A stretch of 64,000 nucleotides of DNA from Erwinia sp. 198. Lineage in GTDB: Bacteria > Pseudomonadota > Gammaproteobacteria > Enterobacterales > Enterobacteriaceae. The notes beneath the pieces are model-generated. The model did no database searches and was not told where the DNA came from. It was given only the letters and a program-made list of their open reading frames with translations. Numbering within the stretch: the first letter of the stretch is position 1; each line of letters begins with the position of its first letter. Below are positions 6,720 through 11,199 of this stretch, one piece after another. A program made the translations under genes and the position numbers. The DNA lies in contig NZ_RHUM01000012.1 of NCBI RefSeq assembly GCF_003937915.1, positions 62,001 to 126,000 of the forward strand, written 5' to 3'.

Positions 6720-7115
6720 TTATTGGTTCTCGCAGTTGTAAGGATAATGATAAACGCTGCGGCTAATATCCAACAAGCGGCAGCTCCGGCGCGTGCCGAT
6801 ATCAAAAGTGTCCTGAAGAAAATTAACCGCCTGACGCTTATCATTGGTAGTAAAGAAGTTTTTCAGTACGCTCTGTAGCATTTCTTTATCAGAAGAGAGC
6901 ATCTGGAGTTCGCGTTCCATACTGTGTACGCGCTCCTCTAACTCTTTGATTTTTCTTCCTTCTTCAGAGAATAATCCGGCGTATTTCTTTTTCCAGCTGT
7001 AGAATGTGGCCTCAGAAATCCCCAGTTCTTCACAAATCTCCTTAACCTTTACGCCGCATTCAGATGCTTTAATGGCACTGGTGATTTGCTCTTCTGTATA
7101 TCGTGACTTTCTCAT
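6720..7115 (-). pseudogene. IS3-family transposase remnant (OrfA fused to start of OrfB)
   Basis: The 131-residue frame begins M-R-K-S-R-Y-T-E-E-Q-I, the typical OrfA start of IS3-family elements. A helix-turn-helix follows (E-L-G-I-S-E-A-T-F-Y-S-W-K-K-K-Y) and then a leucine-zipper-like coiled coil (about residues 50-85). It continues without the usual frameshift into an OrfB-like N-terminus (R-R-S-C-R-L-L-D-I-S-R-S-V-Y-H-Y). It then stops: the whole DDE catalytic domain is absent, so it cannot transpose. I could not find matching terminal inverted repeats. It sits just upstream of the flippase/ATP-grasp locus and marks past insertion there. Confidence 0.8.
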
Positions 7116-7656
7116 GGATGCTATTACCTTTCTTAACTATAAAGTGATGAGAATGGCTGCACTAAAGAATGGATCTAATTTATCCATTAATCAGGACAGC
7201 GACGTTAAGTTCGCGATTTGAATTGCAGGCTTTAAGTTAAGGGATTATGAATAAATATCATCATGGGATTTCTCCTATTTTATTTGCAAAGCACCTGGTT
7301 AGCTTTCGATAAAGCGCTTTTTGTTATAAATTCGATTCATGCCAGCAGCAAGGCCAGTTGGTAATTCAGAATGATCCAGCATGCGGAAGAAAAAAACTGT
7401 GCCAGGATATTCTCCAGCGTTGTTCGTGCTGAGGTACATTGCTAACCAGTATCAAGTCCAGGAAGAATCAGACGGTTCGTTAAAAAAACGATCTGATAAA
7501 ATAAAATCTTTTAAATAAGAACGGTGCGCTATCGCCCGTAAAATAATATTCCGGACGCTTATTTTTGCCGGGCCCAGGCCAGGTTTACTTTCTCTGTGAT
7601 AGACAAGGATGTACTGACTTTCGTTATAAGTTATTAGTTTTACGAAGGAAGCTTCA
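7116..7656. other. AT-rich region upstream of the flippase
   Basis: About 540 bases without a supportable gene between the transposase remnant (leftward) and the flippase (rightward). I looked for the JUMPstart/ops element that precedes many enterobacterial polysaccharide clusters and do not see it. The promoter for the flippase operon should lie here but I cannot point to it with confidence. Confidence 0.5.
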
Positions 7657-8913
7657 ATGAAACACAGTGTCGTCACGAACGCTGCCTGGATGATGTCAGA
7701 GAAGGTAGTTTCGGTATTTGGTGTAATTTTTGTTACATCCTATGTTGCAAAATCTTTTGGGCCATCTGTTTTTGGGCAAATCGCATTTTCTGCATCCATT
7801 TTTTCCATTGTTCAAACCGTAGCGATTTTTGGTACGGAAACCATCCTGTTTAAAAGCATCAGCAAAAGCGCGGCGAAAGGCCTGCGGCTGATGGCCGTGG
7901 CAAAACAGCTACGTATGGCGTTGTTATTACTGCTTTCTTTTCCGGTGCTGGCGTGGGTCTGGCTGGAGATGCGTGAAAACTTTTTGATTTTTGCCGTGGC
8001 GTCGTTTCTGTCGGCTATTTTCGTGACTCAGGATATTTTTAGCGTTTATAACAACGCGCGACTGGAATCGCGGATGAACACGGTTGCTAACGCAACGGGA
8101 ATGATTATCAGTTTCGCCATTAGCTTTGCTATTGCGTGGTTCAAGCTTAATCCGCTACTGCTGTCCTTCTCGATTGTTGCGGTGACCTTGGTGCCGTACC
8201 TGATTAAGCGGACGATGTTTTATCAAAAAAATACCATCAGTCCGCCAGCCAGGCGCAAGCACCGCAGCTATCTGCGCTATCTGTTCCATGCGGGACTGCC
8301 GCTGGCAATCTCCAGCGTGTTTATTTCTGTTCAGGTAAAGCTGGCGCAGTTTTTCCTGGTCGGCGTGGGATCGGCACACGAGCTGGGGCTGTTTACCGCT
8401 GCGAATACGATTTCTGCCTCATGGATATTTATCCCGGTGGCGATTATCACCTCCAGCTTCTCGGAAATTTTCCGTGAGCGGGCGGATGTGGCTTTGAGAC
8501 TGGCGGCCAGGCTTAACGGCTACGTTATGGCTGTTTCACTGTTTATGCTGCTGGTGGTTGCGCTGTTCGGCGAAAAAATTGTTAGCCTGCTGTACGGCCA
8601 TGACTATCAGCAGTCGGGCGATCTGGTCACGTTGCTTTCCCTTGCGACCTGCTTTTCCGCAATGGGCACCGTCGCCTATCGCTACATGGTGAAAGAGGGT
8701 GGTTTTAATTATCTGCTGGTGAAAATTATTTTACTGGTGGCGGTCAGCGTAGTAACCAACTGGTTTTTCATTCGTTTTTGGGGCTTGACGGGTGCCGCGT
8801 GGAGCGTGCTGGTCACGGAGCTGTTATCCCTGACGCTGATGAATTATTTCTTTAAGAATGGGATCATTCTTAAGATGCAGCTTTCCTCACTCAACTACAA
8901 AACCTATAGGTGA
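7657..8913 (+). CDS. Polysaccharide flippase (Wzx-like, MOP superfamily)
   Basis: A 418-residue inner-membrane protein with about 12 hydrophobic segments and the N-terminal pattern of Wzx/RfbX flippases (N-A-A-W-M-M-S-E-K-V, S-Y-V-A-K-S-F-G-P, F-G-T-E-T-I-L-F-K). These proteins move undecaprenyl-linked oligosaccharide units across the inner membrane. A Shine-Dalgarno-like GAAGG lies 6 bases before the ATG. The stop overlaps the region just before the first ATP-grasp gene, so the two are almost certainly co-transcribed. No glycosyltransferase, polymerase or initiating transferase is nearby, which is unusual for a Wzx gene. Confidence 0.85.
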   Translation: MKHSVVTNAAWMMSEKVVSVFGVIFVTSYVAKSFGPSVFGQIAFSASIFSIVQTVAIFGTETILFKSISKSAAKGLRLMAVAKQLRMALLLLLSFPVLAWVWLEMRENFLIFAVASFLSAIFVTQDIFSVYNNARLESRMNTVANATGMIISFAISFAIAWFKLNPLLLSFSIVAVTLVPYLIKRTMFYQKNTISPPARRKHRSYLRYLFHAGLPLAISSVFISVQVKLAQFFLVGVGSAHELGLFTAANTISASWIFIPVAIITSSFSEIFRERADVALRLAARLNGYVMAVSLFMLLVVALFGEKIVSLLYGHDYQQSGDLVTLLSLATCFSAMGTVAYRYMVKEGGFNYLLVKIILLVAVSVVTNWFFIRFWGLTGAAWSVLVTELLSLTLMNYFFKNGIILKMQLSSLNYKTYR

Positions 8914-8921
8914 GTAAGAAA

Positions 8922-9872
8922 ATGGTAGACGCAAAAAAACAACTTAAAAAGGCCGCTCTGAGTTGCATCCGAATTATGCCGTGGTCTTGCCAGGACAGAA
9001 TATATTATTTTCATCGCTTTAAACGGATGCCGCATATTCGCCATCCCGGTTCCTTTAATGAAAAGGTACTGTTTCGCAAGTTTATTAAAGGCGATTACGA
9101 TTGTTACGCCGTGTTATCAGATAAAATCCTGGTGCGGGATTATATTTCCCACAAGATAGGTGGGGAATACCTGATCCCGTTGCTACACACCACGGATAAT
9201 CCTGAGACGCTGTTTGAGCTGGAAACGTTAAAAGATACGGTTATTAAGCCAAATCACGGTTCAGGAATGGTTAAAGTCTTTGTAGAAGAACCTGATTTTG
9301 TCGAAAAACATCAGCTGATTGAACGCTGTGGCGAGTGGCTGACAAAAGATTATTCGCATGAAGCGCGTGAAATCCATTACCGCGATATCAAACCGCAGAT
9401 CATGGTTGAGCAGCGGGTAGGAGACGGTAAGTCTACGGCGATTGACTACAAGTTTCATATGTTTAACAAGCAGGACGGCCACTTTGAGTATGTGCTACAG
9501 GTGGTGTTTAACCGTAGCGATAATCAGCCGCTGTCGATGTTGTTCTATGTCAATAATCTTGATAGCTGCTTCTACCGCCGCTTTGACAATGCCGGACTGG
9601 ATATCAGCCACAACCGGGCCGCGCTGGAGAAGGCACTCGCGCTCAGCAAAAAGCTGGCCAGTGATTTCGATTACGTACGGGTTGACTGGTATATCAGCCA
9701 GGGCGACGTCTACTTCGGCGAGCTGACCTTTACGCCAGGCGCAGGCCTGATGCCGGTGCTGAAGCACGGGCTGGACGAAATGATGGGTAAGATGTGGCTG
9801 CAGGATGGTCAATCAGCCGCTCTGGCGGAGCGGCTGGAAAGCGCGCCGTCGACGTCGCAGAAAAAACAGTAA
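8922..9872 (+). CDS. TupA-like ATP-grasp protein, copy 1
   Basis: A 316-residue protein of the TupA-like ATP-grasp family. Seen features are M-P-W-S-x-Q-D-R-I-Y-Y near residue 19, F-N-E-K-V-L-F-R-K, the nucleotide-binding V-I-K-P-N-H-G-S-G-M-V loop, D-Y-K-F-H-M-F-N, and the C-terminal R-V-D-W-Y...Y-F-G-E-L-T-F-T-P-G-A-G metal/ATP motif. ATP-grasp enzymes ligate a carboxylate to an amine via acyl phosphate. TupA relatives act in cell-surface polymer synthesis (teichuronopeptide in Bacillus). I chose ATG 8922 over GTG 8910 because it leaves 18 residues before M-P-W-S, exactly as in the second copy. It begins 8 bases after the flippase stop. Confidence 0.85.
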   Translation: MVDAKKQLKKAALSCIRIMPWSCQDRIYYFHRFKRMPHIRHPGSFNEKVLFRKFIKGDYDCYAVLSDKILVRDYISHKIGGEYLIPLLHTTDNPETLFELETLKDTVIKPNHGSGMVKVFVEEPDFVEKHQLIERCGEWLTKDYSHEAREIHYRDIKPQIMVEQRVGDGKSTAIDYKFHMFNKQDGHFEYVLQVVFNRSDNQPLSMLFYVNNLDSCFYRRFDNAGLDISHNRAALEKALALSKKLASDFDYVRVDWYISQGDVYFGELTFTPGAGLMPVLKHGLDEMMGKMWLQDGQSAALAERLESAPSTSQKKQ

Positions 9873-10213
9873 TAAAACCCAGGACGGCCGCTGGCCGCTC
9901 TGTTCGGTAAAAACGGAGTTGTCGTCCCGCGAAGGGCACTACCGCAAGCAGAAATCTGCTCAGCGCGTCCTTAACGGGCTTTTCGTCAGTGAGTTTTCTC
10001 TCTTCTGATGCCAGAGGCATGAATCTGGTGTTGTCTTGCAGGAAGCAGAGACCGTGAGCAGGAAAACTGCATAAACGGGTAAAGCAGCTGACGGATTTTT
10101 TATGTCTGCCGGGAAAAATGAGACGCGGGTTTCGCGATTTCGGATGGCGAAAAAACGCTATTTTGAAGACATTTTTCCTCAAACAATTATAAAGCCTGCA
10201 TATGAGGTCGAAA
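9873..10213. other. Gap between the two ATP-grasp genes
   Basis: The gap is 341 bases, with mixed composition and no recognisable gene. It is unusually long for two genes of one operon, so the second copy may have its own promoter. The AT-rich stretch at about 10150-10200 is the likeliest site. I see no intrinsic terminator after copy 1. Confidence 0.45.
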
Positions 10214-11167
10214 ATGCTAAAACTCAAAGCAGAAATAAGAAAAGGTTTCCTGTTCCTTTTCAAAAAAATGCCCTGGTCCTACCAGGACAGAATTTATTAT
10301 CTGCATAAATTTAAAAAACTACCCAACATACACCAGCCGAAACTTTTTAATGAGAAAGTTCTGTACCGCAAATTCGTCACCGGCGACTACCTGCGTTATG
10401 GCATGCTATCCGATAAGTTATTGGTTCGTGACTATATTTCTCAGACCATTGGGGATGAATATTTAATCCCGCTGCTGCATGAAACGGCCGATCCTGTCAC
10501 GCTGCTGGGGCTTAGCTCGCTGAAGAACACCGTTGTGAAACCCAATCACGGGTCAGGCATGGTGGAAATTTTGCTGGAAGAGCCGGACTGCTTGCAGAAA
10601 CAGCTGCTGATCAAGCGCTGCGAAGAGTGGCTGAGCCGGGATTTCTCGCACGAAGCGCGTGAGATCCACTATCGCTATATTAAACCGCGCATTCTGGTTG
10701 AGCAGTACGTCGGCGACGGTAAATTTGCCGCCGTTGACTACAAGTTTCACATGTTTAACAAGAAAGACGGTACTTTCGAGTACGTTTTGCAGATTATCTA
10801 TAACCGCTGCGGCAACGCGCCGCTGTCGATGAACTTCTACGTTAACACGTTAAAATCCTGCTTCTATAAGATCCGCGATACGGGACTGGATATCAGCGGC
10901 GACCTGGAAACGCTGGAAAAAGCGTTGGCGCTGAGCAAAAAGCTGGCCAGCGACTTCGATTACGTGCGCGTTGACTGGTATATCAGCGAAGGGCAAATCT
11001 ACTTCGGCGAGCTGACCTTCACGCCGGGTGCAGGCATGGTAACCGGTCTGGATCAGGGGCTGGACAAGATCATGGGCGACATGTGGCTACAGGAACGTAA
11101 GCCAAAAACGCTGAAGGCTATTGGCGGCGAAGCGGCGGCCATGGCCGGGACGCTGAAGAAAGTTTAA
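10214..11167 (+). CDS. TupA-like ATP-grasp protein, copy 2
   Basis: A 317-residue paralogue of the preceding ATP-grasp protein, close along its whole length: the same M-P-W-S-Y-Q-D-R-I-Y-Y, V-V-K-P-N-H-G-S-G-M-V, D-Y-K-F-H-M-F-N and Y-F-G-E-L-T-F-T-P-G-A-G-M motifs. All ATP-grasp signature residues seen in copy 1 are kept, so both copies should be active. The ATG at 10214 has GAGG six bases upstream and aligns with the copy 1 start; the ATG at 10202 has no ribosome-binding site. A perfect 12-base-pair terminator follows within a few bases of the stop. The differences at the C-terminus and substrate half suggest different acceptors. Confidence 0.85.
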   Translation: MLKLKAEIRKGFLFLFKKMPWSYQDRIYYLHKFKKLPNIHQPKLFNEKVLYRKFVTGDYLRYGMLSDKLLVRDYISQTIGDEYLIPLLHETADPVTLLGLSSLKNTVVKPNHGSGMVEILLEEPDCLQKQLLIKRCEEWLSRDFSHEAREIHYRYIKPRILVEQYVGDGKFAAVDYKFHMFNKKDGTFEYVLQIIYNRCGNAPLSMNFYVNTLKSCFYKIRDTGLDISGDLETLEKALALSKKLASDFDYVRVDWYISEGQIYFGELTFTPGAGMVTGLDQGLDKIMGDMWLQERKPKTLKAIGGEAAAMAGTLKKV

Positions 11168-11172
11168 AGAAG

Positions 11173-11199
11173 AAAGCCGCATGATCTTCATGCGGCTTT
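11173..11199 (+). terminator. Intrinsic terminator after ATP-grasp copy 2
   Basis: A perfect 12-base-pair stem (AAAGCCGCATGA with its complement) with a 3-base loop. It closes the flippase/ATP-grasp unit and, read on the other strand, lies just beyond the yjcB stop, so it may serve both. Confidence 0.8.

What the first reader, a model, noticed from the sequence alone, without database searches (positions are those of the whole stretch)
7657..11167. Orphan flippase with twin TupA-like ATP-grasp enzymes
A Wzx-type flippase is followed by two ATP-grasp ligases of the TupA-like family, closed by a perfect terminator. No glycosyltransferase, polymerase or initiating transferase is present in the window. 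Known Wzx genes sit inside full polysaccharide clusters. This three-gene unit could attach amino acids or peptides to a lipid-linked glycan made elsewhere (for example enterobacterial common antigen or O-antigen precursor) and flip it. That would be a surface-modification cassette I have not seen described.
Basis: partly seen in the sequence, partly recalled or inferred. Interest (0 to 1): 0.78.

Follow-up and report, generated by a model that had tools for sequence, protein, structure and literature searches.

The report
Orphan flippase–amidoligase surface-glycan editing cassette
A plant-associated bacterium and many of its relatives carry a small gene unit, kept far from known sugar-polymer genes, that probably adds a chemical group to one of the cell's surface sugars and carries the altered sugar across the membrane; similar two-gene units also ride on small plasmids of other bacteria, so surface coats may be edited by moving just two genes.

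Summary
A Wzx-like flippase (7657-8913) is followed by two TupA-type ATP-grasp ligases and a perfect 12-bp terminator stem, with no GT2 or GT4 glycosyltransferase match in the window. It is not the edge of a cluster: flippase plus ATP-grasp occurs in own + 24 of 35 same-genus genomes, and 56 of 65 loci from a scan of named genomes (mostly Erwinia and Pantoea) have the intact pair, the same flank and a divergent IS3-derived DNA-binding gene. dN/dS is low. The 'twin' is a local duplication (own + 2 genomes). Three genomes near E. piriflorinigrans hold only remnants. Diverged flippase/ATP-grasp pairs occur elsewhere in the genus, on Pantoea plasmids and on 9-11 kb Klebsiella plasmids. Best reading: the ATP-grasp amidates a uronic-acid carboxyl of a lipid-linked repeat unit made elsewhere, most likely the AmsG-type exopolysaccharide, and the dedicated flippase moves the edited unit. 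Precedents: the unlinked wceO-wzx pair of stewartan and a glucuronate-amidating TupA domain of Campylobacter. Glycan, amine and function are untested; the published Pantoea gene rfbX3 may be this flippase. New variant of a known kind.

The parts
7657..8913 (+). Wzx-like MOP flippase (418 aa), first gene of the unit
   Evidence: (only PF01943, E 7e-5); full-length at 65% identity or more in own + 24 of 35 same-genus genomes; dN/dS 0.04-0.12
8910..9872 (+). TupA-type ATP-grasp ligase, copy 1: diverged duplicate, GTG start overlapping the flippase stop
   Evidence: PF14305 106 bits; copy-1 clade 100/100; 20 of 162 conserved columns changed, charged conserved residues kept
10202..11167 (+). TupA-type ATP-grasp ligase, copy 2: orthologue of the single-copy gene of relatives
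   Evidence: (PF14305 110 bits)
11173..11199 (+). intrinsic-terminator-like perfect 12-bp stem, shared with convergent yjcB
6720..7115 (-). 131-aa IS3-transposase-derived HTH protein (OrfA-like part plus OrfB start, no catalytic core), divergent from the unit; probable local regulator (role inferred)
   Evidence: NF033516 positions 1-121 of 369 only; own + 32 of 35; dN/dS 0.02-0.08
7253..7275 (.). conserved non-coding block in the 541-bp HTH-flippase spacer, candidate operator (inferred)
7318..7333 (.). second conserved non-coding block in the same spacer, candidate promoter element (inferred)
   Evidence: not called by the consensus promoter scan

Best explanation
The unit is a two-gene repeat-unit editing cassette (one gene duplicated here). 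Inferred: in the cytoplasm the ATP-grasp uses ATP to form an amide between the carboxyl of a uronic acid in an undecaprenyl-PP-linked repeat unit and an amine (amino acid or small amino compound). The dedicated flippase then translocates the edited unit, which the ordinary Wzx of the main cluster would handle poorly, and the polymerase and export machinery encoded elsewhere do the rest. The likeliest target is the AmsG/WbaP-initiated, glucuronate-containing exopolysaccharide of Erwiniaceae (amylovoran/stewartan type). Copy 1 probably uses a different amine or acceptor. Expression may be switched, with the conserved HTH gene as a candidate controller. Shown: gene content, conservation, duplication, orphan placement, occurrence on plasmids, kinship of the parts. 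Inferred: chemistry, target glycan, flippase specificity, regulation.
For: Conserved flippase/ATP-grasp pair with no glycosyltransferase beside it at one site and, as diverged pairs, at three other sites in the genus (L050, L140, L141), on Pantoea plasmids and small Klebsiella plasmids. Low dN/dS. Flippase relatives inside full clusters: 4 of 4 examined are PF02397/WbaP-type-initiated (L204; L211; L115 and L145); the two with gene annotation also carry uronic-acid genes (ugd; tviB and tuaD), which are common in capsule loci, so this is modest evidence. In P. stewartii the flippase profile scores the GT-linked wzx at 69.6 bits, other flippases at 15.9-22.3. The own genome has an AmsG/WbaP-type EPS cluster. 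TupA-like Cj1438C amidates the C6 carboxyl of GlcA with serinol-P or ethanolamine-P (PMC11800379, passages). Amylovoran and stewartan units contain GlcA, and Wzx preference can turn on one residue of the unit (PMC6436433, passages). Orphan modifier+flippase precedent: wceO with a wzx.
Against: No glycan from a carrier was analysed; no published amide on an Erwiniaceae EPS was seen (one search, 8 of 16 papers listed). Stewartan and amylovoran as tabulated in PMC6436433 show no amide, although the P. stewartii genome examined has a truncated flippase and three genomes near E. piriflorinigrans only remnants. No RcsAB-box-like site above chance (4 mismatches, as good in 55% of shuffles), although EPS genes of P. 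stewartii are RcsA-activated (PMC4689408, passages). Partner exchange (Klebsiella pair) shows flippase and ligase are not strictly co-inherited. One Pantoea plasmid pair has an autotransporter O-heptosyltransferase gene two genes downstream. PMC5603701 (passages) describes stewartan synthesis as depending on a single locus, unlike the three-cluster account. Fold prediction could not be run, and no PDB sequence relative was found.
Confidence: 0.5

Rival explanations
1. Same chemistry and dedicated flippase, but the target is enterobacterial common antigen (ManNAcA carboxyl) or an O-antigen repeat unit.
For: The own genome has an ECA cluster with ManNAcA synthesis genes and a PF01943 flippase in it; ECA is shared by the family (recalled). 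A different TupA type sits beside a Wzx inside an O-antigen-like cluster of G027.
Against: The four cluster-embedded relatives of the flippase that I examined are in PF02397-type, not WecA-type, clusters. The flippase profile scores the own ECA-cluster flippase only at 24 bits.
Confidence: 0.2
2. The ATP-grasp ligase makes a small peptide-like or aminoacyl-sugar metabolite and the MOP protein exports it (a secreted compound, not a polymer).
For: No polysaccharide genes among the neighbours scanned. ATP-grasp ligases also make peptides (recalled). Orphan TupA genes without a flippase lie beside envelope-type genes on Klebsiella plasmids.
Against: The flippase hits only the polysaccharide-synthesis family at E<1, and its examined cluster-embedded relatives sit in capsule-type clusters.
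Confidence: 0.12
3. The ligase amidates uronic acid or Kdo of the LPS core, or another lipid-linked sugar, lowering surface charge; the flippase moves a lipid-linked intermediate.
For: On an mcr-8 plasmid, TupA genes flank a phosphoethanolamine-lipid A transferase, a diacylglycerol kinase and a two-component system; on another Klebsiella plasmid one lies by MipA/OmpV and two-component-like genes.
Against: Those ligases are only about 26-30% identical and no flippase is annotated beside them; core sugars are not flipped by Wzx-type proteins (recalled).
Confidence: 0.1
4. A fading relic of a lost polysaccharide cluster.
For: Broken or lost in several lineages: 6 of 65 scan loci, the P. stewartii record among them, and remnants in three genomes near E. 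piriflorinigrans.
Against: dN/dS 0.03-0.12 across species and a retained diverged duplicate with conserved charged residues intact.
Confidence: 0.05

Closest known systems
wceO and its wzx (stewartan cluster III; wzx2) of Pantoea stewartii
   Same: A repeat-unit-modifying enzyme paired with its own flippase, apart from the main EPS cluster; in PMC6436433's table Ps Wzx2, not Wzx1, moves the stewartan unit (passages).
   Different: The modifier is a glycosyltransferase, not an amide ligase; the order is enzyme then flippase, at another site (I took the wceO, wzx2 and pyrD names for those ORFs by eye and recall). P. stewartii (this flippase truncated) and P. agglomerans hold both loci.
Cj1438 C-terminal TupA-like amidoligase, Campylobacter jejuni capsule
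   Same: TupA-like ATP-grasp fold, amide on a uronic-acid carboxyl (PMC11800379, passages).
   Different: Fused to a glycosyltransferase in a capsule locus; no dedicated flippase partner mentioned in the passages seen.
rfbX3 and downstream gene of Pantoea eucalypti 299R (PMC4989142, section 3 read in full)
   Same: A Wzx-like gene complemented only together with its downstream gene; lower in an lrhA mutant; a reporter was on only in cells inside capsule-covered clusters.
   Different: Identity with this unit not established: no sequence was at hand. [quoted passage not shown] The downstream gene is called a glycosyltransferase, a name that TupA genes also carry in some records (CP044369, CP044391, CP026658).
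gtrABC O-antigen glucosylation cassettes (recalled)
   Same: Few-gene, mobile, remote modification of a glycan made elsewhere.
   Different: gtr uses a small flippase, a bactoprenol glucosyltransferase and a periplasmic transferase; no GT2 match lies in the window.

Membership tests
TupA-like ATP-grasp (PF14305) | profile match above the curated cut-off | tested here: met
   106.1 and 109.7 bits against 25
TupA-like ATP-grasp (PF14305) | conserved charged/catalytic-type residues kept in both copies | tested here: met
   K113, N115, H116, E167, K181, R256, D258, E270 invariant in 45 rows including copy 1; that they are catalytic is inferred
TupA-like ATP-grasp (PF14305) | amide-ligase activity on a uronic acid | not testable with these tools
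   no biochemistry here
Wzx/PST polysaccharide flippase (PF01943) | profile match above cut-off | tested here: inconclusive
   window copy 22.8 bits against 28.2, no other family at E<1; P. agglomerans orthologue 30.8 bits
Wzx/PST polysaccharide flippase (PF01943) | relatives lie in polysaccharide clusters | tested here: met
   L204, L211, L115, L145; orphan GT2-flanked relative L143; the weaker matches L146, G029 and G059 (23-24% identity) were not examined
complete Wzx/Wzy polysaccharide cluster | glycosyltransferases, polymerase or initiating transferase adjacent | tested here: not met
wceO-wzx pair | glycosyltransferase partner of the flippase | tested here: not met
   the partner is PF14305; different locus in the same genomes
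active IS3 element (upstream gene) | OrfB/DDE catalytic core | tested here: not met
   131 aa, matches 1-121 of the 369-position IS3 model, 64.6 bits against 160

The most novel reading that the evidence does not exclude
There is a recurring, mobile class of two- or three-gene 'unit-editing' cassettes, a modifying enzyme plus its own flippase, that re-specify a capsule or exopolysaccharide whose main cluster lies elsewhere. Several partner types exist (TupA amidoligase; GT2; GT2+GT2; GT32), and the TupA form on ColRNAI-type Klebsiella plasmids would mean that two genes on a small plasmid can change capsule chemistry. In Erwiniaceae the cassette would be a resident, switched EPS modifier under an IS3-derived regulator, possibly the rfbX3 unit of Pantoea multicellular clusters.
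Probability: 0.4. Interest if true: 0.85.

Novelty: new variant of a known kind. Interest (0 to 1): 0.7.

Why it matters
If right, surface polymers can be chemically edited (charge, epitope, phage receptor) by a portable pair of genes unlinked to the polymer's own cluster. Capsule or EPS type predicted from the main locus alone would then be incomplete, and the uncharacterised Wzx/TupA genes of Erwinia, Pantoea and Klebsiella plasmids would get a directly testable role. It also explains why a flippase would be kept without glycosyltransferases.

Tried and rejected
Edge of a larger cluster: rejected. Non-polysaccharide MOP exporter: disfavoured; no phylogeny against MurJ or MATE proteins was made. 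Link to EPS type by presence/absence: not tested; the three remnant-bearing genomes match E. amylovora, E. pyrifoliae and E. tasmaniensis in contig length only by my recall. The own genome's second orphan flippase (C22, next to a GT2) as wzx2: no match in P. stewartii at E<=1e-5 (the tool warns that an empty answer without a positive control shows nothing). RcsAB box: not above chance. Leader peptide in the spacer: considered by eye on the alignment, not conserved. Strict flippase/ligase co-inheritance: distance correlation 0.92 for 15 pairs (0 of 5000 permutations) and 0.81 for 8 divergent pairs (2 of 5000), but the Klebsiella pair breaks it. Class-wide search: 8 of 368 other genomes have TupA matches at E<=1e-20, 15 places; none of the 14 regions (10-19 kb) laid out around 14 of the 15 shows this flippase type. 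Structure prediction (17 attempts, 16 for the ligase, one for the flippase) never got past a busy queue, so no pocket comparison.
Full report
CHECK. The three genes are as described. The flippase and copy 1 overlap by 4 bases, so they are probably translationally coupled. Copy 2 follows after 329 bases. A 12-bp perfect stem lies at 11173-11199. Flanking genes by Pfam are an alpha/beta hydrolase, DUF3828, DUF535, AraC regulators, EamA, YjcB, a GGDEF cyclase, an AraC/MerR pair that looks like SoxS/SoxR (gene names recalled), a GST and a permease. None of the 16 window proteins scanned (6, 10) is a glycosyltransferase or polymerase. Genome-wide, GT2, GT4 and PF02397 matches lie on other contigs or more than 22 kb away.

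DISTRIBUTION. Among 60 genomes (own, 35 same genus, 24 of other families) the flippase is found full length at 65% identity or more in own + 24 of 35 and in 0 of 24 others. The ATP-grasp family tracks it: all 24 carriers, none of the other 35 genomes above the family's cut-off. By coordinates the HTH gene lies 515-584 bases from the flippase in all 24. I laid out the surroundings of 17 of the 24: all 17 share genes of the window's flank. A pattern scan of a collection of 84,980 species genomes gave 65 loci: mostly Erwinia and Pantoea, also Mixta, Winslowiella, Izhakiella, insect symbionts, Rosenbergiella, one Pseudomonas, MAGs and two records labelled Enterobacter. Of these 65, 58 have an intact pair and 56 have intact pair, HTH gene and shared flank. 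The seven without an intact pair are L106, L109, L112, L113, L114 and L116 (broken or cut) and L115 (a 33% relative in a polysaccharide cluster, with no TupA match). The scan used two short peptide patterns, so absence elsewhere is weak evidence.

DUPLICATION. Copy 2 groups with single-copy orthologues. The copy-1 rows form one clade (100/100) on a long stem of 0.59; its place among the Erwinia rows is unresolved. Copy 1 (two rows) differs in 20 of 162 otherwise conserved columns, including 223-225 and 280-282, but keeps the conserved charged residues. dN/dS against the window copy is low (flippase 0.04-0.12, ligase 0.03-0.09, HTH 0.02-0.08, nine rows each; copy 1 0.06 in the one unsaturated pair of three); dS was saturated in 1 of 9, 2 of 9 and 4 of 9 comparisons.

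THE HTH GENE. The 131-aa divergent protein is an IS3 OrfA-like DNA-binding part running into the start of OrfB, without the catalytic core (the OrfB part by the IS3 model and by eye). It is in own + 32 of 35 same-genus genomes and, at E<=1e-20, in 0 of 24 others; it persists at 73-80% identity in 8 of the 11 that lack the flippase. In three of those (G007, G012, G014) three genes of the same sizes stand where the pair would be; in G007 they are pgaABC-type by Pfam. Of the other five, three hold remnants of the pair and two show none. The spacer to the flippase is 518-558 bases in the loci measured except L101 (412, where the ORF caller took an early start) and holds two conserved blocks. A regulator role is inferred.

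DECAY. In three genomes close to E. piriflorinigrans, ligase fragments remain in all three and internal flippase fragments in one. In the P. stewartii record the flippase is truncated and no HTH gene was found. So the species with EPS structures quoted in PMC6436433 (amylovoran, stewartan; passages) may be among those that lost the unit.

OTHER PAIRS. Flippase/TupA pairs at 34-38% (flippase) and 30-43% (ligase) identity to the window genes lie at three other sites of the genus (L050 and L140 in G030, L141 in G027), on Pantoea plasmids (L202, L209) and on ColRNAI-type Klebsiella pneumoniae plasmids of 9-11 kb. Two flanking proteins scanned per genus site were an AraC regulator and an alpha-amylase-family enzyme (L050), a FAD enzyme and an unmatched ORF (L140), an SBF transporter and DNA ligase (L141). 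L209 has an autotransporter O-heptosyltransferase two genes downstream. Of 72,556 plasmid records, 10 match the Klebsiella pair's DNA (6 Klebsiella, 4 E. coli); 5 cover at least 80% of it, and a sixth, cut at the record start, carries the ligase and part of the flippase; the E. coli records match only the flippase part, as do 4 of 5,426 E. coli genomes. In the one E. coli plasmid read the flippase sits with a GT32 gene. Plasmid gene tables are incomplete. A Klebsiella michiganensis plasmid has the pair with a split flippase. The Klebsiella small-plasmid pair combines a flippase of one lineage (59-62% to L140, L202, L209) with a ligase of another (28-29% to the same), so partners are exchanged.

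WHAT GLYCAN. Flippase relatives in full clusters that I examined (L204, L211, L115, L145) are all PF02397/WbaP-type-initiated; the two with annotation carry uronic-acid synthesis genes. In P. stewartii the flippase profile scores the GT-linked wzx at 69.6 bits and three other flippases at 15.9-22.3. The own genome has an AmsG/WbaP-type EPS cluster, an ECA cluster and further glycosyltransferase clusters. Amylovoran and stewartan contain GlcA (PMC6436433). A TupA-like domain amidates GlcA in Campylobacter (PMC11800379). Together this favours amidation of a GlcA-bearing, hexose-1-P-initiated unit, with a flippase fitted to the edited unit.

KNOWN LITERATURE. Searches for ATP-grasp+flippase+Pantoea (0 papers), TupA-like names (25 papers), amidoligase/Klebsiella/flippase terms (5 papers) and amide/uronic-acid/Pantoea terms (8 of 16 listed) showed no title or abstract opening that describes this pair; nearly all were seen only as listings, and most subscription papers are not held. 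PMC4989142 (section 3 read) reports rfbX3 of P. eucalypti: Wzx-like, needing its downstream gene, lower in an lrhA mutant, reporter on only in cells of capsule-covered clusters; RNA-Seq of clusters showed no significant change. In a P. agglomerans genome PF01943 finds four full-length flippases and one short ORF: wzx2 (GT-like ORF upstream, pyrD-like downstream), wzx1 (inside the EPS cluster), wzxE (inside the ECA cluster, with a wecF-like gene, a glycosyltransferase, downstream) and this one (names by eye and recall). Of the four only this one has both a long own upstream region and a downstream partner, so it is the likeliest rfbX3 (about 0.5). wzxE or an O-antigen wzx is not excluded.

VERDICT. 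Real, conserved, probably functional, mechanism inferred. New variant of a known kind: the orphan modifier+flippase pair, here with an amide ligase.

Noticed in passing
6720-7115: Domesticated IS3 OrfA/OrfB-start protein present in own + 32 of 35 same-genus genomes, including 8 without the flippase pair.
   Followed up: partly
L135, L136, L137: In three genomes a three-gene set (pgaABC-type by Pfam in L136) stands where the flippase pair would be, next to the same HTH gene.
   Followed up: partly
L143 (9581-10876), L144 (9694-10986): Another orphan cassette: a flippase about 30% identical between two GT2-like genes (Pfam-tested in L143), beside RecG, SpoT-type and permease genes.
   Followed up: no
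L148 7513-10073: The own genome has a second orphan pair, GT2 + 521-aa PF01943 flippase, on contig C22; no match in P. stewartii (no positive control).
   Followed up: partly
L205, L206: TupA amidoligase genes without an annotated flippase flank mcr-8.1, a diacylglycerol kinase and a two-component system, or sit near MipA/OmpV and two-component-like genes, on Klebsiella plasmids. A paper on mcr-8.6 holds the word amidoligase (PMC12708576, listing only).
   Followed up: no
L201: 8.1-kb E. coli plasmid with a GT32 gene and a flippase 96% identical in DNA to that of the Klebsiella plasmids, between IS1 copies.
   Followed up: no
L211: A record filed as Acinetobacter phage MD-2021a holds a chromosomal-looking capsule locus (wza-wzb-wzc, tviB, wcaJ, galU).
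   Followed up: no
L001 281-1177: A third TupA gene of the own genome sits on a 3-kb contig next to an ORF that looks like alkaline phosphatase (named by eye).
   Followed up: no
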